IMG/VR virus record: IMGVR_UViG_3300015195_000015
Span: 1 to 27,211 of that record
From: a virus
Length of the DNA stretch: 27,211 nt
Direction: 5' to 3' (one strand)
The notes under the pieces were generated by a model. It saw only the letters and a list, made by a program, of their open reading frames with translations, was not told the DNA's origin and did not search any database. This document shows positions 5,528 to 24,463 of the stretch, one piece after another (positions within the stretch are counted from its first letter, which is position 1; every line of letters starts with the position of its first letter). A program made the position numbers and the translations under genes.

Positions 5528-5710
5528 TCAACGCTGGCGCAACCGCTTAGACAGCGATTGTTCGCGAACGCGCTGCAGACGCTTTTCGTCCTTGCGCAGG
5601 AAGTCGCTGGAATACTTCGCATCTAGTTCGGCCTTGGGAATGACTGGCCGATCATCCTCGAATGCCTGATCTGGAAGCGTCTTGCCGTCTCTAGTCTTGA
5701 TGCCGCTCAC
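5528..5710 (-). CDS. Small basic protein coupled to zeta-toxin gene
   Basis: A 60-residue protein starting at GTG 5710, overlapping the zeta-like gene stop (GTGA). Highly charged: an acidic middle (AFEDDRPVIPKAELDAKYSS) and a basic C-terminus. Translational coupling directly downstream of a toxin-like gene invites an antitoxin guess, but it does not resemble epsilon or PezA antitoxins. No family recognised. Confidence 0.6.
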   Translation of the reverse strand: MSGIKTRDGKTLPDQAFEDDRPVIPKAELDAKYSSDFLRKDEKRLQRVREQSLSKRLRQR

Positions 5711-6681
5711 CCGCCACCTCCTGCTACGAACTTGGGCGCGCGGCCCAGAACGTTGTTGTCGTAAATCTGCCATTTCGTGAACGATGGCTTCAAGTTGTCG
5801 AATGTGCGCTCGTTCGTTGTGCTTCCCAGAACGACGCTCAAGGGCACATAGCGGCCATCGGCGCCGCCGCGTTCGAACCTTGCAAGCGCTCGGCCTGCAG
5901 CCTCTTTCGGGCTTGTGAACATGTAGTAGCCCTCGGCCTTGTAGCCCGCCTGATGATATTCGGCCAGTCGAACCGCGGCGCCGCTCTCGGACCGCAGTGT
6001 TGCGTCGAGCACCACATTCAGTTTGGCCGACCGCGCCGTGTTTTCTGCGCGCGCCAGAATGTCGCTCGATTCCTCGTGGTAAAGCGCGGCGTTCCATCCG
6101 GCGTACCCAGGCAACATTTCCTTAATATGGTCGGAGTTGAGCACGATTGCCTTGCTCGGATCGACGGGACCGGCTGGATTCGTGAACCAGCTTTTGCCAG
6201 ATCCACCGCGGCCGCCGAGGAAAGTGATCGTAGGCTTCTCGCCTTCCGCCGGCGTCGCGTCTTGCACCGCTTGATCGGTGAAAATCGTATCTAGAATGCG
6301 ATTGTGCGCCGCCTCGCGCTCTGCCGTGTACGTGCCATCCGGATTCTTGAAGCCGCCTTGACTCACCGGCGCGTCGGTCGACACGCTTCGCGACAGCCGC
6401 GCCTCGGTGTCGGCGATCTTGGCCTTTGTGTCTGCCGACGTGGTGGCGAGAATGTGATCTGGCGTGACGCTCGGATCATGGTGCTGGCCGAAGAGATTCT
6501 GCGCTGCTGTCTCAGCACTGCCGGCGCCTGAACTGAAGCGGCCACGCTCGTCATGGTTTTCGTTGTATTTCTCGACCTGCTCGAGCGCGTCATCAAAAGA
6601 AAGTCGCGCGGTGGTAATCGTTACTGGCGACGACCGCTTGTTGATTTGATCCAGCGCATCTTCGAACATCAGGCGCGCCAT
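5707..6681 (-). CDS. Zeta-toxin-like kinase with phage-head N-terminal segment
   Basis: A 324-residue protein from ATG 6681 with GAGGG about 6 nt upstream. A P-loop (GGRGGSGKSWF, residues about 156-166) follows ITFL, as in zeta/PezT toxins, which phosphorylate UDP-N-acetylglucosamine and poison cell-wall synthesis. Later, KLNVVLDATLRSE and YKAEGYYMFTSPKEAAGRAL fit the same fold. The first 50 residues are unusual: two copies of a 14-residue motif (ARLMFEDALDQINK and ARLSFDDALEQVEK) and then NENHDERGRFSSG, a linker commonly seen in phage head-associated proteins. It is encoded downstream of MuF, where polymorphic head-borne effectors are often found. Packaging in the head is inference; catalytic activity has not been shown from sequence. 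Confidence 0.75.
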   Translation of the reverse strand: MARLMFEDALDQINKRSSPVTITTARLSFDDALEQVEKYNENHDERGRFSSGAGSAETAAQNLFGQHHDPSVTPDHILATTSADTKAKIADTEARLSRSVSTDAPVSQGGFKNPDGTYTAEREAAHNRILDTIFTDQAVQDATPAEGEKPTITFLGGRGGSGKSWFTNPAGPVDPSKAIVLNSDHIKEMLPGYAGWNAALYHEESSDILARAENTARSAKLNVVLDATLRSESGAAVRLAEYHQAGYKAEGYYMFTSPKEAAGRALARFERGGADGRYVPLSVVLGSTTNERTFDNLKPSFTKWQIYDNNVLGRAPKFVAGGGG

Positions 6682-6695
6682 GATAGCCCTCAAGG

Positions 6696-6884
6696 ATGCA
6701 GCGATTCGACGTCGACACGCTTTCCGATGCAGATCGCGCCTTCGTCGAGGCGATTGCAGGCTTATACGGAAAGATCGAAGCGCTCAAGATTGTCTTCCCC
6801 ACGGGCGCAAAACTGGCGGCACTCACTGCAGCGCAGCTTGTGCTCGCCAGCTTAGTCAAACGTGCAGTTAGATCGCCGGAGTGA
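6696..6884 (+). CDS. Possible small plus-strand gene in the head operon
   Basis: A 62-residue frame (starts MQRFDVDTLSDADRAFVEAI) that fills the gap between two minus-strand genes and has natural-looking composition, with a helical and hydrophobic C-terminal half. There is no properly spaced Shine-Dalgarno: AAGG touches the ATG. It overlaps the end of the 50-residue minus gene by 17 nt. It may be real or a chance frame. On the minus strand this gap holds no convincing gene. Confidence 0.35.
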   Translation: MQRFDVDTLSDADRAFVEAIAGLYGKIEALKIVFPTGAKLAALTAAQLVLASLVKRAVRSPE

Positions 6885-7020
6885 ACGGCTTGTTCGTGCG
6901 CTCCTTGGCGGACTCGGCTGCCGCATCGGCCGTGTAGTTTTTGTCTTGCTGCGTGCGGCGCGCGTCGGCAACGAGGTTCGTTTCGACAACGGGCTGCGCT
7001 GGTCGGTTCTGCTTTTTCAT
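6868..7020 (-). CDS. Small charged head-region protein
   Basis: A 50-residue protein from ATG 7020 with a clear AAGGAG Shine-Dalgarno 7-8 nt upstream. It starts MKKQNRPAQPVVETNLVADA and is hydrophilic throughout, with no membrane segment. It lies between the permuted tRNA-like sequence and the zeta-like gene. No family recognised. Confidence 0.65.
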   Translation of the reverse strand: MKKQNRPAQPVVETNLVADARRTQQDKNYTADAAAESAKERTNKPFTPAI

Positions 7021-7096
7021 GGTCGTCTCCTTCGATCGCTGGAGTGCGACCGTGATGGGGAAACGTTCTGAAGGCGGCGACGTTCCGAAATGGGGT

Positions 7097-7184
7097 GGCG
7101 GCGCTCTATCCAGTTGAGCTACGAGGTAGGCATTCCGTGTACTTTGGAAAATCCTCGACCGGGATCGAACCAGCAACCTCCGCC
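7097..7184 (-). tRNA. Circularly permuted tRNA-like sequence (tRNA-Arg type)
   Basis: Read on the minus strand, the order is: anticodon-stem 3' strand GGCGG (7180-7184), variable loop AGGTT (7175-7179), T arm GCTGG-TTCGATC-CCGGT (7158-7174), acceptor 3' strand CGAGG (7153-7157), a 26-nt spacer, acceptor 5' strand CCTCG (7122-7126), TA at positions 8-9, D arm GCTC-AACTGGATA-GAGC (7103-7119), base 26, and anticodon-stem 5' strand CCGCC (7097-7101). Every stem of a tRNA is present, but the 3' half precedes the 5' half and the anticodon loop is open at the outer ends. Half sequences resemble bacterial tRNA-Arg with a CCGCC/GGCGG anticodon stem. Acceptor pairs 1 and 2 do not match, and T-stem pairing includes two G-U pairs. 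Inside the spacer, TTCC and GGAA can extend the acceptor hairpin. It starts within about 10 nt of the MuF stop codon. Whether it is a working RNA, a decoy or a remnant is open. Confidence 0.6.
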
Positions 7185-7192
7185 TGGCAGCA

Positions 7193-9061
7193 TTAGAACG
7201 CAGAAATGATCGTCACGCAACGGCAATTATGAGCTATAATTCCGTTGGCGACATACCAGCCGCCTTCCGTCTCGAGGTTATAGACATGCCCGCTGAATGG
7301 TTTCCGCCTGACGCTGATGACCTTGTTCGCCGCTATTTGTCCGGCACGTCCATCAATCAACTGGCGCGCCAGCTTGGCGTCAGCCGCATTCCTGTCACCC
7401 GTGTGCTCAAGAAGTTGTGCGGCGAAACGCGGGGTCGAAGCGCCGCTGAGACGCTGAAGTGGTCGCGCATGACCGCCGCCAAACGCAAGCGACAAGTGCG
7501 GGCAGCCCATGACGCGACGCGCGGCGCGCCCAAGTCTTTCGAGGCCAAGGTCAATCTCGCGCTGAGTTGCGAAAAGAGTGGAACGCGCAACGTCGGGCAC
7601 GGAGAGCGCGAACTGGCGAAGTTGCTCACTCAGCGAGGCGTTCCGTTCATTCCACAACAAGCGGTTGGACCCTACAACTGCGACCTCGGAACCTTCCCCG
7701 TCGCCGTGGAAATCTTCGGCGGCAACTGGCACTGGAGCGGACGACATTTCGCGCGAACGCCCGAGCGCATTCGTTACTTCATGGATCGTGGCTGGCACGT
7801 CTTCATCGTGCGCGTCACCAAAGCCAAACCCGTCACCGAACGCACCGCCGATGAGGTCGTCGCCTTCATTGAGCGCGCCTGCGCCGACCCACCCACGCCG
7901 CGTCAATATCGGGTGATTGACTGTGCAGGAAAATTCATTGCCGGCGGCAGTTCGAACGACCGCGACATCTCCATCGAATGCACGACGGCTATAGCCCGTG
8001 ATCGGACTTCTGGGCGTTACGAGAGTGTCCCCAAGAAAGCATTGAGGATGTAGCGGCGGGTACATCGCTGGCCCGAGTGGCGTTTCAAAGTAGCCGCCCA
8101 GCGGCACCCCATCCGGATTCATGTCAGGCACTTCGGCGCAGTAGATGCAAAGCCGGTCATCGGGAACCACCAGCCATTGGCGCCTCAACGTGTTGCGATC
8201 AAGCAGACCCTTGTCCGCCGCCTGACTCCATGCCGCATTCTGCGCTGCGTTCGCTGCCCTGATCGTCTCGGTGCGCGCGATGGTTTCGGCTCGCATCGTC
8301 AGCATGCGCTCGCCATAGCGTTCGACCTGGCGGTCAATTTCCTCTTGCGTCAGTTCGCGCTCAGCGTCGGCGCCCAGCGTGCGGTCAAGGGTCGGGTCGA
8401 AGCGCCGGTCGCGCAGCGCTCTGGTCATGGCCTCGCGGTCGCCGGTCTCGAGCAAGTTCCTGAAGTTCGACACAGCGGCCGCCTGGCGGTCCGTCAGGCC
8501 TATCAGGGAGCGGATCTGGCGCGCCTGCTCATAAGGATGCCCGCCGTAAGCCATGGCGTCAGCGACAATCCTACGGATGCCTAGACGGGTGTCGTTTGAG
8601 ATTTCGCGGATTAGGCCGAGGTCGTAACTTCGCAGGAACTCCGTCGCCTTCGGGTTAGCGATATCGAACCGCATGGAAAGCCGCCCAGCGGTCGGGATTG
8701 ACCGGGCCACGGTCTGCCGGCCAGCTTCGATGAACGCCGCCTCCAGCGGTGCGCCCAGGGCCACACTGAGGCTCGGCGCCATCGTCTGGTCGATGCCAAG
8801 CACCCGGATTACCTGGTTGACGTCGCCCGTGGCTATCGCGTCCGCCAGCGCCTTGTCGTCAACGCCCGCCTTGGCCTTGTCGATCGCGTCCAGAAACGCC
8901 TGGCGCACCTTCGGGTCGGCCTTGTCGGCGATGTCGAGCAGCCATTGATAGTCCGGCTCTGGGTCCATGGCCTTGGCCAGCGGCGAGCGCCAGCGCGTTG
9001 CCTGACGATAGCCGGACTGCTTGGCGATGCTGTGGCTGTGCGGAATGCAGAACCGGTTCAT
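7193..9061 (-). CDS. SPP1 gp7/MuF-type head protein interrupted by an intein
   Basis: A 622-residue precursor from ATG 9061, which overlaps the upstream stop (ATGA). Removing the intein leaves a 350-residue MuF protein. The MuF head-morphogenesis region contains AETIARTETIRAANAAQN, then RQWLVVPDDRLCIYC, and the conserved end YPPLHPQ-CRC. MuF proteins join the head near the portal and are ejected or help genome delivery in some phages. The intein lies exactly between HPQ and CRC, the most conserved spot of the domain. After splicing, only CRCVTIISAF follows. The mature protein would need splicing to restore HPQCRC. Neighbours (portal upstream, zeta-like protein downstream) fit the head module. 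Confidence 0.9.
   Translation of the reverse strand: MNRFCIPHSHSIAKQSGYRQATRWRSPLAKAMDPEPDYQWLLDIADKADPKVRQAFLDAIDKAKAGVDDKALADAIATGDVNQVIRVLGIDQTMAPSLSVALGAPLEAAFIEAGRQTVARSIPTAGRLSMRFDIANPKATEFLRSYDLGLIREISNDTRLGIRRIVADAMAYGGHPYEQARQIRSLIGLTDRQAAAVSNFRNLLETGDREAMTRALRDRRFDPTLDRTLGADAERELTQEEIDRQVERYGERMLTMRAETIARTETIRAANAAQNAAWSQAADKGLLDRNTLRRQWLVVPDDRLCIYCAEVPDMNPDGVPLGGYFETPLGPAMYPPLHPQCFLGDTLVTPRSPITGYSRRAFDGDVAVVRTAAGNEFSCTVNHPILTRRGWVGAGALNEGDDLIGGAFGDGFGFGDAHDEDVPATIHEVTNALGRSREMSSAPVPVAAEDFHGDGEGSEVAVVGSNRLLWNERNASLSEQLRQFALSVPDVARSTLFATQREIDLGLERLGRAARRVMGCPHLSLAFGGGHARPLQRLSGASTPRFAAQLLEHTGDRNAADAKLARQLIDGRAGQIAANKVISVRRKPFSGHVYNLETEGGWYVANGIIAHNCRCVTIISAF
7226..8041 (-). mobile_element. 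Intein in MuF (272 residues) lacking an in-frame endonuclease
   Basis: The intein begins with Cys1 (codon 8039-8041, CFLGDTLVTP) and ends with the dipeptide His-Asn (Asn codon 7226-7228), followed by Cys+1 (7223-7225). Block B is TVNHPIL with His43. Blocks F and G are GHVYNLETEGGWYVANGIIA then HN. A middle block has AEDFHGDGEGSEVAVV, typical of phage inteins of this subtype. No LAGLIDADG, HNH or GIY-YIG motif is present on this strand. The complementary strand of the same DNA carries a nuclease gene (7286-8053), so the element appears to be mobile through an antisense endonuclease. Splicing residues are all intact. Confidence 0.9.
7286..8053 (+). CDS. HTH plus Vsr-like (EDxHD-type) homing endonuclease, antisense to the intein
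   Basis: A 255-residue protein from ATG 7286, preceded by GAGG (7274-7277) at 8 nt. The frame is open from ATG 7229, which is the exact complement of the intein's C-terminal His codon. Residues about 9-45 form a helix-turn-helix (LVRRYLSGTSINQLARQLGV, then SRIPVTRVLKKL). A basic linker follows, then a Vsr/EDxHD-like core: GHGERELAKLLTQRG, YNCDLG (Asp133), VAVEIFGGNWHWSGRH (Glu142, His149), and a helix plus WHVFIVRV. The gene ends 12 nt past the intein's first codon, inside extein DNA. Its codons align exactly with intein codons on the other strand. Family placement rests on these motifs; it would cut intein-free MuF genes (inference). Its existence depends on both strands coding, which is rare but strongly suggested here. 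Confidence 0.8.
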   Translation: MPAEWFPPDADDLVRRYLSGTSINQLARQLGVSRIPVTRVLKKLCGETRGRSAAETLKWSRMTAAKRKRQVRAAHDATRGAPKSFEAKVNLALSCEKSGTRNVGHGERELAKLLTQRGVPFIPQQAVGPYNCDLGTFPVAVEIFGGNWHWSGRHFARTPERIRYFMDRGWHVFIVRVTKAKPVTERTADEVVAFIERACADPPTPRQYRVIDCAGKFIAGGSSNDRDISIECTTAIARDRTSGRYESVPKKALRM

Positions 9062-9339
9062 CAGTTTGCTTTGTCCCCGGACTGGCGCATGTGCCCGACG
9101 ATCCACTCAGCGATTCCAGCCTCTGATGTTTCGCGGACGATCGACCACGGCATTTCGATCTTGATGATTTGGTCGTCCATCACGATACCAAAGGTCACAG
9201 ACCCGCGCGTTAGCGAGGCAGCAATCTTGCCAGCCGGATCATTGGCGACCTTCTCGCCGCGCGATGCTGCTTTGAGCATCGTGGCGATGTTGTCGGCCTG
9301 AGCTTTGATCTTGTGGAGTGGAGACGCAGAAGTGGTCAC
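9061..9339 (-). CDS. Small head-region protein
   Basis: A 92-residue protein starting at GTG 9339, coupled by GTGA to the upstream gene and by ATGA to MuF. AAGG lies about 8-9 nt upstream. A helical N-terminus (SPLHKIKAQADNIATMLKAA) is followed by a beta-rich segment (GSVTFGIVMDDQIIKIEMPW). This small protein between portal and MuF is seen in related phages, but its function is not known to me. Confidence 0.7.
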   Translation of the reverse strand: MTTSASPLHKIKAQADNIATMLKAASRGEKVANDPAGKIAASLTRGSVTFGIVMDDQIIKIEMPWSIVRETSEAGIAEWIVGHMRQSGDKAN

Positions 9340-9863
9340 GTTCCAACCTTTTCGGTCTCGCTACCGTCCATTTCAAGCCAGATGAACTCGCCGTCTGTCC
9401 CGACTGGGAAGTGACCTCGGCACGTCGCGCAGAAAGTTCTGCTGTAGAATTTCGGGTCGCGCGCATAGGTTTCCGACAGCCCGCGGCCCATCGTCGTGAC
9501 GTGCCCGCATTTCGCATGCCGGTAGGCGTCTCGGTATGGCCGCACGAAGCCTTTCGAGCGCTCGCCTTCACTCAGAACGATGTAGCCTTTTTGCTGCCCG
9601 CTGGCATTCAGTTCGGTATGGCTTCTGTCATCGGGAACGGGTGAGCCGTCAGTCAGTTCAATGCGACTGCGATCAACGGGTGTTGTCTCTGCAATTCTGC
9701 GCTTTGCAATTTCCACGTCGGTGCGCGCTTTACGTTCATCGGCATCAGCACTTGACAGGTCGCGACGCACTTGGTCCTGCCGCGCCTGTGCCATCTGCAG
9801 CGCCTCGTGAGCCTTTTTCAGCTGTAGCTCCGCGTCCATCACTTTCTCCTGACTAACCATCAT
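9336..9863 (-). CDS. Conserved phage protein with coiled coil and zinc-type Cys pairs
   Basis: A 175-residue protein from ATG 9863, overlapping the portal stop. Residues about 9-60 form a coiled coil (LQLKKAHEALQMAQARQDQV). A middle signature YIVLSEGERSKGFVRPYRDA leads to CGHVTTMGRGLSETYARDP and then FCATCRGHFP, giving four Cys/His positions that could bind zinc. This is a recurrent protein between portal and MuF genes in proteobacterial phages. Function unknown; probably virion or assembly. Confidence 0.75.
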   Translation of the reverse strand: MMVSQEKVMDAELQLKKAHEALQMAQARQDQVRRDLSSADADERKARTDVEIAKRRIAETTPVDRSRIELTDGSPVPDDRSHTELNASGQQKGYIVLSEGERSKGFVRPYRDAYRHAKCGHVTTMGRGLSETYARDPKFYSRTFCATCRGHFPVGTDGEFIWLEMDGSETEKVGT

Positions 9864-12556
9864 GTGAACTTGAAGCCGCGCGCGCGTCGTCCTCTGAACT
9901 TGGCCAGCTTTTGAGCTGGCGTCTGAGCCGCAGGGTCGTCGTCGCCCTGACCTTGGCCTTGCGCATCGGCCGGGTCGGTCGAGTCCGTCGTTGAATCGGT
10001 CGTGTCGCCTCCAGCTTGATCCTCGCCGCCATCGTTGAACGCGCCGGACGACACGCCTGTCTGCGCCGGCCAGCCTGCCTCTTCGCGCAGGTAAGCCTCG
10101 AGGACCGGGTCTGGCATGATCGCGCCTGTGCCGATCGCCGCAGTGATGTAAGCCGCAACCTTGTCGAGATCATCCTTGGCAATCTCGCCATGCGCCATCT
10201 TGCACTGGCCTTTGAGGCCGTTGACGGTGAGCAGGTCCGGCACACTCTTGCGATTGAACTCGGCGGTGATCAGATCGAGAAACCCGCCGACCGCGACGCT
10301 GAACATCTGCGATTTGTTCTTGCTCATGCTTGACGAGCCACGGCCGGACGCAGCGCTCGAGCCCGAACCGATCGTGATGAAATCGGCGAGCAGCGTGGCC
10401 GCTATGCGGTGATCGTAGCGGTCGATGATTTCGTTGGTCGCGAATTGGCGCCGCCCGCCCGTGGCGAGCAACTCCATTTTGTAGAGCTCGTGCCCGTCTT
10501 TGTCGTACGCCATCGGCAGGACGAAGCCTTCCTGCTCGTTGCGCACCGTGTCGCGCACCACAACCTTGAGCGCTGCCAGCTGGGCCTTGTCTTCGGGGCT
10601 CGCGTTTGCATTCATCAAACGCGCCGGCACCCACATGACGGGCAATCCAGTCAGGTCGCGCTCGACGCCGATCGCCTCGATCATCTGGATGCGCTTCTTG
10701 AAGAAATAACTCGTGTAAGCGTTGCGCATGATCGAAACGCCTTCGGGGTTGTTCTTGATCAGGCGCGTCTTGAAATGCAGGCATTTGCCGAGCGGCACGG
10801 TGAGTAGCGGCCCGCCAGTGGGAAGCAGCTGGACTAGCGCGATGGGATCTCCGGACTCGTCAAAGACCCAGTGCAGCAGCGTTTCCTGCGCGCGCCCGGC
10901 GAACTTGCGCCATCCGATCATGCCGTCGTCATAGCGCGAGTTTTTCTGCGGATCGTTCGAGCGGCCGCTGCGGGTCTTGTAGACTATTTCGTGCACACAG
11001 TTCGAAACGATGATCGGCCCGGCACAGAACGTGTGGTCCTCGTCGACCGTGAAATCGTAAACGTCGCCGTTATAGTCTTCGGCGGTAATGTCGGTCACTT
11101 CATGGCCGATGGTTTGCTGAAACACCTTGCATTGCAGTCCCTGCGTCTTGGGGCCATCGCTGTGAAGCCATTTAAAAACGCTGGTGTAGGACATGCCGAC
11201 TTCTGCCGCTATTGCGTGCATCGTCATTCCGCCAGCACGAAGCATGTGGACGCGTTCGTTGGCCTCGACGCTGCGCTTCCAACGCATTTCTCGCTGCGGC
11301 AACACGCCGACGGTGTAGCCACCAGGAATCGTGCCGAACGTGCCTTGAGTGCCCCCGACGCGGTACGAAAGCGGCGACGGTAGTCCAAGGGCGCCCGCAA
11401 TCATCTGCATCTGGTGACCGAGGTTTTTGCTAACTGTGAAGGCTGCGGCGATTTCGGTGTCGCTTACGGCGTTCACGCCACGATGGCCGTCGCCGTACAC
11501 CCATCCGTCAAGCACGCCCTGAGCGAATGCCTCGTCGGTCGGCAAACGTGAAAGGGCCTTGGTCCATGAATCGTCGCCGACGGCCCATTCATCGATCAAC
11601 GCCCGGAACTCTGGGTGACTGAACGATACGCGACCGCTGTTCGCGCCAGAATATCCGCCGCCGGTGAGACCGGGAAACCCGCGTTGCGCGCGCGCCGTGA
11701 CCGGCGAGGGACGGCCTCCGTCGCGCGACTGGTATGGTTTAAGATCGCGCGCTACCGCCCAAGCGTTGCAGCGCTGCTCAACTTCATCGACTTCCTTGCT
11801 GTGCAGCGAGAAAGTGACGCGGTTCCGGTCGCCATCGCGGCTGCCTTCGGCCAGATATAGGCCGACTATCCATCCACTGTCATAGTCGCCGCCGGCCTCC
11901 ATCTTCGGACGTGGGCGCAGAACAATATCGCCTGCGACAAGTTCGCCGGCCGTAACCCAGCCACGCACTGTCGGAAGTTTGTGTTCTGGCGTCATGCGAA
12001 TCGGGTGCGGATAGCCGCGCGTTCGAATGCGCATCATTTTGCCAGTGTGGCGGCGCGTGAATATCTTTGTCACCGGACGCCCGCGCCCGTGCTTGGTCAG
12101 CAGCATGTCGCCAGTAGCAACCGCGTCGGCGCGCTTCACCGTCCCGTCTGCCATAGTCACGATCTGATCGGGCGGCAGACACCAACCGTACTGCAGGAAC
12201 GTCAGAATCTCGCTGATCAGCTCCGGCCAGGTCTGCTCGAGGTCCGTCATGCAGGACTGGCAGAAGTCGGCCGCCTCGATGTCGTCAGGCTTGGTGCTGG
12301 CTGGTTCGAACTTGAAGTCCACACCGCGCAACAGGAACTCGATCGCAAAGAACATCGCGCCGATGATCGGGTCGTTGTCCCGCATCTCGCGGTACATGCG
12401 CTGGCCGCGCCAGCCGATGAGTTCGCGAAGCCATTCTTCCCGAACGTAGCCCGAGAACTGGCGCAGGCCGGTCGCGCCGAACTCGGTGAACGAAATGTTT
12501 TCCGCGTTGTCGGCCGATGCAGGCGGGGCTGCGGTCACGTTGCGCTTAGCTACCAT
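9860..12556 (-). CDS. Portal protein (DUF935-like) interrupted by an intein
   Basis: An 898-residue precursor from ATG 12556; the exteins join to 504 residues, a usual portal length. N-extein features are WRGQRMYREMRDNDPIIGAM, EFLLRGVDFKFEP and EILTFLQYGW. C-extein features are VHEIVYKTRSG, SRYDDGMIGWRKFAGRAQET, HFKTRLIKNNPEGVSIMRNA and VERDLTGLPVMWVP, as in portal proteins of the DUF935/Mu gp29-like kind. The portal ring sits at one head vertex, docks the terminase and lets DNA in and out. The intein interrupts the conserved YGW-C-xHEIVYK spot. The start overlaps the end of the terminase frame by 11 nt. Confidence 0.9.
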   Translation of the reverse strand: MVAKRNVTAAPPASADNAENISFTEFGATGLRQFSGYVREEWLRELIGWRGQRMYREMRDNDPIIGAMFFAIEFLLRGVDFKFEPASTKPDDIEAADFCQSCMTDLEQTWPELISEILTFLQYGWCLPPDQIVTMADGTVKRADAVATGDMLLTKHGRGRPVTKIFTRRHTGKMMRIRTRGYPHPIRMTPEHKLPTVRGWVTAGELVAGDIVLRPRPKMEAGGDYDSGWIVGLYLAEGSRDGDRNRVTFSLHSKEVDEVEQRCNAWAVARDLKPYQSRDGGRPSPVTARAQRGFPGLTGGGYSGANSGRVSFSHPEFRALIDEWAVGDDSWTKALSRLPTDEAFAQGVLDGWVYGDGHRGVNAVSDTEIAAAFTVSKNLGHQMQMIAGALGLPSPLSYRVGGTQGTFGTIPGGYTVGVLPQREMRWKRSVEANERVHMLRAGGMTMHAIAAEVGMSYTSVFKWLHSDGPKTQGLQCKVFQQTIGHEVTDITAEDYNGDVYDFTVDEDHTFCAGPIIVSNCVHEIVYKTRSGRSNDPQKNSRYDDGMIGWRKFAGRAQETLLHWVFDESGDPIALVQLLPTGGPLLTVPLGKCLHFKTRLIKNNPEGVSIMRNAYTSYFFKKRIQMIEAIGVERDLTGLPVMWVPARLMNANASPEDKAQLAALKVVVRDTVRNEQEGFVLPMAYDKDGHELYKMELLATGGRRQFATNEIIDRYDHRIAATLLADFITIGSGSSAASGRGSSSMSKNKSQMFSVAVGGFLDLITAEFNRKSVPDLLTVNGLKGQCKMAHGEIAKDDLDKVAAYITAAIGTGAIMPDPVLEAYLREEAGWPAQTGVSSGAFNDGGEDQAGGDTTDSTTDSTDPADAQGQGQGDDDPAAQTPAQKLAKFRGRRARGFKFT
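11000..12181 (-). mobile_element. Portal intein (394 residues) with LAGLIDADG motifs and inner HTH
   Basis: Cys1 is at 12179-12181 (CLPPDQIVTMADGTVKRADA) and the terminal Asn at 11000-11002, followed by Cys+1. Block B is TPEHKLP (His67). Two LAGLIDADG-type motifs are visible: GWIVGLYLAEGS (103-114) and GVLDGWVYGDG (222-232). Residues 313-340 (MLRAGGMTMHAIAAEVGM, then SYTSVFKWLH) form a helix-turn-helix inserted between endonuclease and C-splicing region. Block F is VYDFTVDEDHTFCAG, and the end is IIVSN. The usual penultimate His is Ser here, a variant known to be tolerated in some inteins. No long convincing antisense frame is seen, unlike in the MuF intein. Confidence 0.9.
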
Positions 12557-24389: not shown

Positions 24390-24463
24390 GATGCTGTGGC
24401 GGAATGGTTACGCAACAGATTGCAAATCTGGCAATGCCGGTTCGATTCCGGCCAGCATCTCCA
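24390..24463 (+). tRNA. tRNA-Cys (anticodon GCA) with encoded CCA
   Basis: Acceptor GATGCTG (24390-24396) pairs perfectly with CAGCATC (24453-24459). The D arm is GCG/CGC, the anticodon loop is TTGCAAA, and the T arm is GCCGG-TTCGATT-CCGGC. The discriminator is T (U73), an identity base for cysteinyl-tRNA synthetase, followed by an encoded CCA (24461-24463). One anticodon-stem pair (A-G) is mismatched. It is preceded by the same TAGGAGCG module as the protein genes. Confidence 0.9.

What the first reader, a model, noticed from the sequence alone, without database searches (positions are those of the whole stretch)
7097..7184. Circularly permuted tRNA-like sequence directly after the MuF gene
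All tRNA stems are present in permuted order: anticodon-stem 3' strand, T arm, acceptor hairpin, D arm, anticodon-stem 5' strand. The anticodon stem is a perfect 5-bp long-range pair. Permuted tRNA genes are known from some algae and archaea, where they need special splicing; I know of no established phage example. Here the open end is the anticodon loop, so the RNA looks like a tRNA already cut in its anticodon. Possible readings: a gene matured by circularisation, a decoy for anticodon nucleases, or the middle of a former tandem tRNA pair.
Basis: seen in the sequence. Interest (0 to 1): 0.88.

Follow-up and report, generated by a model that had tools for sequence, protein, structure and literature searches.

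The report
Phage Y-RNA-like permuted tRNA mimic
A short stretch after a phage capsid gene encodes an RNA shaped like a tRNA whose parts are in rotated order; this is the known design of bacterial Y RNAs, so it is an addition to a known kind rather than a new one.

Summary
On the minus strand, 7184-7097, every tRNA stem is present in circularly permuted order; anticodon and acceptor stems are each 5 of 5 Watson-Crick, and the isolated 88-mer's minimum-energy fold is exactly this cloverleaf. Chance (0 of 1,500 simulated windows reach 4/4) and a leftover tandem-tRNA junction (0 of 414 real junctions reach 5/5) are unlikely.

The novelty claim does not hold. This is the tRNA-like module of YrlA, the bacterial Y RNA (RF02553, model positions 23-85). 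Permutation is YrlA's normal mature form, so no splicing or circularisation is needed. A model built from 30 other phage RNAs, without the window, scores it 56.2 bits over its full length. Related RNAs covary and some lie beside phage Ro60 genes.

Open: the Ro60-binding stem is not demonstrated, no Ro60 gene is found in this 27-kb fragment, and the two nearest relatives that span the site lack both the RNA and the intein beside it. Best reading: a phage YrlA-type tRNA mimic, possibly a Ro60-free orphan.

In passing: a conserved endonuclease-like gene lies antisense inside the MuF intein.

The parts
7097..7184 (-). YrlA-type circularly permuted tRNA-like RNA module (88 nt)
   Evidence: RF02553 29.6 bits at 7099-7182, model 23-85; model R2 built without the window, 56.2 bits, positions 1-73/73
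7180..7184 (-). anticodon-stem 3' strand GGCGG
   Evidence: pairs 5/5 with 7097-7101
7158..7174 (-). T arm, loop UUCGAUC
   Evidence: sequence; R2 alignment
7153..7157 (-). acceptor stem 3' strand CGAGG
   Evidence: pairs 5/5 with 7122-7126
7127..7152 (-). closed loop joining the acceptor strands, with an inner UUCC/GGAA hairpin
   Evidence: MFE fold
7122..7126 (-). acceptor stem 5' strand CCUCG
7103..7119 (-). D arm GCUC-AACUGGAUA-GAGC
   Evidence: sequence; R2 alignment
7097..7101 (-). anticodon-stem 5' strand CCGCC
7189..7198 (-). UUCUAAUGCU just 5' of the module; AUGCU lies near this place in the comparator RNAs (which were picked for it); UUC-UA is also the last MuF codon and the start of its stop
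   Evidence: 10-mer shared with L062; 67 of 3,882 window 40-mers share a 10-mer with some comparator. L178 MuF also ends TTCTAG, so the first half may be coding only
7080..7201 (-). possible outer (Y-like) stem GCGUUCU 7201-7195 with GGAACGU 7086-7080; not established
   Evidence: in MFE and centroid; not better than shuffled flanks, 401 of 1,000 as low
7193..9106 (-). MuF-like head gene with intein directly upstream of the RNA
   Evidence: PHROG 3517 3.6e-63; Pfam Intein_splicing 1.2e-6, below its curated cut-off; NCBIfam intein_Cterm over its cut-off
6868..7020 (-). next small ORF downstream (50 aa)
   Evidence: the ORF listing

Best explanation
The element is a phage-encoded small RNA of the YrlA type: the tRNA-like module of a bacterial Y RNA, lying on the coding strand of the phage head genes in the gap between MuF and the next ORF (transcription itself not shown). 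It is functional in permuted order and is neither a tRNA gene nor a splicing precursor. Inferred mechanism: the module folds into a tRNA-like L whose acceptor end is a closed loop and whose anticodon end is open, so it cannot be charged or decode and is recognised only by proteins that grip the tRNA body (Ro60-associated machinery, tRNA-modifying enzymes, or tRNA-cleaving defence nucleases). Shown: structure and family resemblance of the module. Inferred: expression, protein partner, function.
For: Only RF02553 and the true tRNA-Cys score below E 1 in the Rfam scan of the window. Leave-window-out model of 30 phage RNAs: 56.2 bits, all 73 positions. Covariation on 39 rows including the window: 90.9% of cells paired against 67.4% shuffled; score 0.635 against 0.181 shuffled and at most 0.142 with partners slid by 1-3 columns. 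In 52 T-arm/D-arm junctions picked without regard to the two long-range stems (but with an upstream ATGCT and no anticodon arm of their own), the acceptor has at least 4 pairs in 40 and the anticodon stem in 23, against 26% and 11% when partners are swapped among the 43 with at least 3 pairs in each. Canonical tRNA tertiary residues are present by sequence (U8-A14, A15-U48, G18/G19 with U55/C56, U54-A58; roles recalled). Related phage RNAs lie beside TROVE/Ro60 genes: Gordonia phage Trax, Xanthomonas phage Olaya, and 6 of 27 IMG/VR records at E<=0.001, 4 over Pfam's cut-off, each within about 2 kb of an RF02553 match.
Against: Far below Rfam's gathering score (29.6 against 69 bits), though Trax's Ro60-adjacent RNA (44.1) and the best of 26 other records (59.8) also fall below it. 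RF02553 is not specific at low scores: 13 of 14 control genomes ring at E<=10 and 7 of 14 at E<=0.001, and 10 tRNA-rich records reach up to 37.6 bits (some may be Y-like RNAs). One true tRNA-tRNA junction (L043) scores 57.4 with R2. So score alone does not separate it. RF02553 matches only the tRNA-like part. The outer stem is no better than shuffled flanks. No TROVE gene in the window, which may be a fragment. The relatives L178/L179 (71% TerL identity) lack the RNA, so orthologous conservation could not be tested.
Confidence: 0.8

Rival explanations
1. Relic of two adjacent tRNA genes: the 3' half of one and the 5' half of the next survive, and the pairing is coincidence.
For: T and D arms are real tRNA parts; RF02553 and R2 also pick up tandem tRNA junctions, one of which outscores the window with R2.
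Against: 0 of 414 real junctions have both stems 5/5; no tRNA genes nearby; no tRNA-family match in relatives L178/L179; covariation among related RNAs.
Confidence: 0.05
2. A true permuted tRNA gene, matured by end joining at the open anticodon end into a working tRNA, as in some algae and archaea.
For: Open end lies in the anticodon region; tRNA body intact.
Against: Base 33 would be C, not the usual U; only 5 acceptor pairs closed by a 26-nt loop, no CCA at the expected place; the same layout in dozens of phage RNAs fits Y RNA. The RNA's true ends are unknown.
Confidence: 0.03
3. Ro60-free orphan RNA that works as a decoy: it competes with host tRNAs for a tRNA-cleaving or tRNA-modifying enzyme during infection.
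For: No TROVE match in this record nor in 21 of 27 other detector-picked records; Y stem not demonstrable; the inhibitor idea is raised for Salmonella YrlA in PMC7790460 (passages).
Against: Records may be fragments; Ro60 could be host-encoded or divergent; no nuclease partner identified.
Confidence: 0.3

Closest known systems
YrlA Y RNA (Rfam RF02553; bacterial Y RNA structure 6CU1, seen in passages of PMC11472068)
   Same: Permuted order, T and D arm sequences, closed acceptor hairpin, open anticodon end
   Different: Outer part of the model (1-22, 86-114) not matched; acceptor loop long (26 nt); no Ro60 gene in the 27-kb record
Phage YrlA-like RNAs beside Ro60 (Gordonia phage Trax, Xanthomonas phage Olaya)
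   Same: Same module; Trax's alignment also lacks part of the second Y helix
   Different: They sit next to a TROVE gene; this one sits behind MuF among head genes
Permuted tRNA genes of some algae and archaea
   Same: Halves in reversed order
   Different: Those become ordinary tRNAs; here no usual anticodon loop or CCA end is seen

Membership tests
YrlA / bacterial Y RNA | Circularly permuted tRNA-like module with T arm, closed acceptor hairpin, D arm and long-range anticodon stem | tested here: met
YrlA / bacterial Y RNA | Ro60-binding stem outside the module | tested here: inconclusive
   RF02553 aligns only 23-85; AUGCU present; stem no better than shuffled flanks
YrlA / bacterial Y RNA | Encoded with a Ro60/TROVE protein | tested here: inconclusive
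   No match in this 27,211-bp record, which may be a fragment; 21 of 27 detector-picked phage records also lack a match
YrlA / bacterial Y RNA | Rfam curated gathering score (69 bits) | tested here: not met
   29.6 bits; a curation threshold rather than a biological feature: Trax's RNA beside Ro60 scores 44.1
YrlA / bacterial Y RNA | Binding to Ro60 in vivo | not testable with these tools
   needs co-purification
Permuted tRNA gene | Usual anticodon loop and CCA-type acceptor end after end joining | tested here: inconclusive
   By reading: base after position 32 is C rather than U, and no CCA at the expected place; true RNA ends unknown
Tandem tRNA remnant | Neighbouring tRNA halves and no cross-complementarity | tested here: not met

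The most novel reading that the evidence does not exclude
Many phages carry Ro60-free Y-RNA-like tRNA mimics as free-standing counter-defence RNAs that occupy host anticodon nucleases or tRNA-handling enzymes without being cleavable, because the anticodon loop is missing.
Probability: 0.2. Interest if true: 0.75.

Novelty: new member of a known kind. Interest (0 to 1): 0.38.

Why it matters
It shows that the permuted tRNA shape in this phage has a known explanation (Y RNA), and that such RNAs occur in dozens of the viral contigs fetched here, many with no detectable Ro60 gene in the same record. That makes a testable question of whether phage Y-like RNAs work without Ro60, for example as tRNA decoys.

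Tried and rejected
Close relatives by the MuF protein in IMG/VR: 14 pattern matches, none confirmed. By terminase: L178/L179 (71%) span the site and lack the RNA; L180 (63%) is a 4.3-kb fragment that shows only terminase and portal, so it says nothing about the site. Genome collection by terminase: one distant hit. Blastn of the RNA in phages: 144 records, none covering 80%; the 60 listed cover at most about a third, many on annotated tRNAs. R2 over eight phages with a MuF intein, one Rhizobium phage and L178: 4 of 10 with a match at E<=0.1, best 22.6 bits, so the RNA does not travel with the intein there. Fold energy as evidence: rejected. Outer Y stem: plausible by eye, not supported (401 of 1,000 shuffled flanks as low, 916 of 1,000 flanks from elsewhere in the window; flanks could also fold on themselves, so the test is weak). 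UUCUAAUGCU: two more phages have it with the same 4-nt spacing (L202, L203), but they were searched for by it, and UUCUA is also the MuF Phe-stop, as in L178. Promoter scan of 6600-7600: none found. RF02553 and R2 scores as sole evidence: rejected.

Rows dropped: of 52 junctions 43 had at least 3 pairs in each stem; three (L032, L134, L157) were dropped; 38 of the remaining 40 plus the window went into A1 (two with 37-nt acceptor loops left out); 30 of those 38 into A2 (rows with a 4-nt variable loop, a near-duplicate and L137 left out). In one search own anticodon stems were taken as the best of three variable-loop lengths, which favours them a little. The 26 and 27 records were picked by my own detector, so those counts are not a survey.

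Papers: PMC7790460, PMC7765460, PMC11472068, PMC7824862, PMC8058203, PMC9569102 and PMC12363180 were seen as passages only; the others as search listings. Chen 2014, Sim and Wolin 2018, Sim 2020, Wang 2018 and Boccitto and Wolin 2019 were not held; what they say is recalled or second-hand.

Full report
OBSERVATION. All four tRNA helices are present in the order anticodon 3' strand, T arm, acceptor hairpin, D arm, anticodon 5' strand. Anticodon and acceptor stems are 5/5 Watson-Crick and sit in tRNA phase: 5-nt variable loop, U8-A9, one base between D arm and anticodon stem. The isolated 88-mer's minimum-energy fold is exactly this cloverleaf. Energy itself is not evidence: 177 of 200 shuffles are as stable, and with longer flanks other folds compete.

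CHANCE AND TANDEM CONTROLS. Among 1,500 simulated windows none had both stems with at least 4 Watson-Crick pairs; 9 strands had at least 3/3. Among 414 genuine tRNA-tRNA junctions in fetched loci none had both stems 5/5. No tRNA lies nearby.

WHAT IT IS. Rfam names it: RF02553 YrlA, positions 23-85, the tRNA-like module, 29.6 bits, E 0.011 against all Rfam. The model is not specific at such scores: 10 tRNA-rich records reach up to 37.6 bits, and 7 of 14 control genomes ring at E<=0.001. So I built independent evidence. Pattern scans of IMG/VR followed by a structure detector gave dozens of permuted RNAs without an anticodon arm of their own. In 52 junctions chosen without regard to the two long-range stems, the acceptor has at least 4 pairs in 40 and the anticodon stem in 23; swapping partners among the 43 with at least 3 pairs in each gives 26% and 11%. 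On the alignment of 39 RNAs, covariation is 0.635 against 0.181 in shuffles and at most 0.142 with partners slid by 1-3 columns (rows had been kept only if they had at least 3 pairs in each stem, which favours the structure). A model from 30 of them, without the window, finds the window's RNA at full length with 56.2 bits, E 9e-19. The same model gives 57.4 bits to one real tRNA junction (L043) and 62-64 bits to stretches between tRNA genes where ARAGORN calls none (L046, L008/L029).

Ro60 CONTEXT. Gordonia phage Trax (L013) has the RNA just upstream of a TROVE gene, as has Xanthomonas phage Olaya. Of 27 IMG/VR records picked by the detector, 6 match TROVE at E<=0.001 (4 over the cut-off), each within about 2 kb of an RF02553 match; 21 do not match. 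Of seven further records with such an RNA only Olaya matches (the eighth record, L178, has no RNA). The window has no match, but may be a fragment. Whether the window's RNA has the Ro60 stem is undecided: AUGCU is present and a stem GCGUUCU/GGAACGU can be drawn, but shuffled flanks do as well, and part of the flank is the end of the MuF reading frame.

RELATIVES. L178 and L179 (71% terminase identity, possibly one phage type) have MuF and portal without inteins and no permuted RNA. So the RNA is not ancestral to the group, or was lost; the stems could not be tested at the orthologous place.

FUNCTION. Known from passages: Deinococcus Y RNA tethers Rsr to PNPase, and Salmonella YrlA gives no fragments when an anticodon nuclease is induced and might inhibit it competitively (PMC7790460); the Y RNA structure 6CU1 superposes circularly on tRNA (PMC11472068); several phages are said to have YrlA (PMC7765460); a small subset of jumbo phages has a TROVE protein, which in cells works with a tRNA-like partner (PMC7824862). 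From this I infer a tRNA mimic on the head-gene strand, acting through tRNA-body-binding proteins. Expression, processing and partner are not shown.

VERDICT. A real, well-formed element and a new phage example of the YrlA tRNA-like module. Not a new class, not a spliced tRNA, not a tRNA relic. The strongest open point is whether it and its many relatives without a detectable Ro60 gene work without Ro60.

SIDE FINDING. The MuF intein (about 7226-8047, minus) is overlapped on the plus strand by ORF 7229-8053, which has HTH_7 similarity (8e-5) and MTES_1575 nuclease similarity (1.2e-4), both below Pfam's cut-offs, and matches 125 phage records, 98 over at least 80% of its length. In 8 of 8 fetched records it lies antisense inside an annotated coding sequence at the MuF position, in the same codon-on-codon phase. 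Resampling synonymous codons of the sense gene predicts 7.8 antisense stops in a Helicobacter prophage (0 seen; 0 of 2,000 resamplings open) and 5.4-6.7 in the Vibrio, Aggregatibacter, Salmonella and Klebsiella phages (0 seen in Aggregatibacter and Klebsiella; 1 in Vibrio and Salmonella, ending the ORF a few codons before the match end; open in 0.05-0.45% of resamplings). The test is weaker in Escherichia (0.037) and weak in GC-rich genomes (window 0.08, Gordonia 0.23, Pseudomonas 0.52). Three literature searches listed no paper whose title or shown abstract describes this (one search listed 10 of 17). No PDB chain matched it convincingly.

Noticed in passing
window 7229-8053 (+), inside MuF intein 7193-9106 (-): A probable homing endonuclease (HTH plus Vsr-like nuclease similarity, both below Pfam's cut-offs) is encoded antisense to the MuF intein, codon on codon. 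The antisense frame is present in 8 of 8 fetched phage records from Helicobacter to Gordonia, and in AT-rich ones it is open far beyond what synonymous resampling allows.
   Followed up: partly
window 9860-12556 (-): The portal gene also carries an intein (residues about 157-519, Pfam 3.4e-10); relatives L178/L179 lack both inteins.
   Followed up: partly
L036 463-596 and 708-779 (-); L175 2033-2097 and 2518-2589; L202 7699-7766 and 7872-7940; L101, L072, L140, L158: Several phages carry two or more YrlA-like RNAs, mostly close together.
   Followed up: partly
L046 7753-7823 (-); L008 6220-6289; L029 2303-2372 (-): YrlA-like stretches sit within phage tRNA arrays in gaps where ARAGORN calls no tRNA.
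   Followed up: no
L177 947-2368 and 2512-2587 (Mycobacterium phage Bromden): A gene annotated 'RNA-binding protein' lies just upstream of a YrlA-like RNA, yet the record has no TROVE match: possibly a divergent or different Y RNA partner.
   Followed up: no
window 5707-6693 (-): A zeta-toxin-like kinase domain (Pfam 2e-24) in a gene that PHROGs links to a minor head protein.
   Followed up: no
window 24390-24463 (+): Ordinary tRNA-Cys(GCA) gene, apparently followed by an encoded CCA.
   Followed up: no
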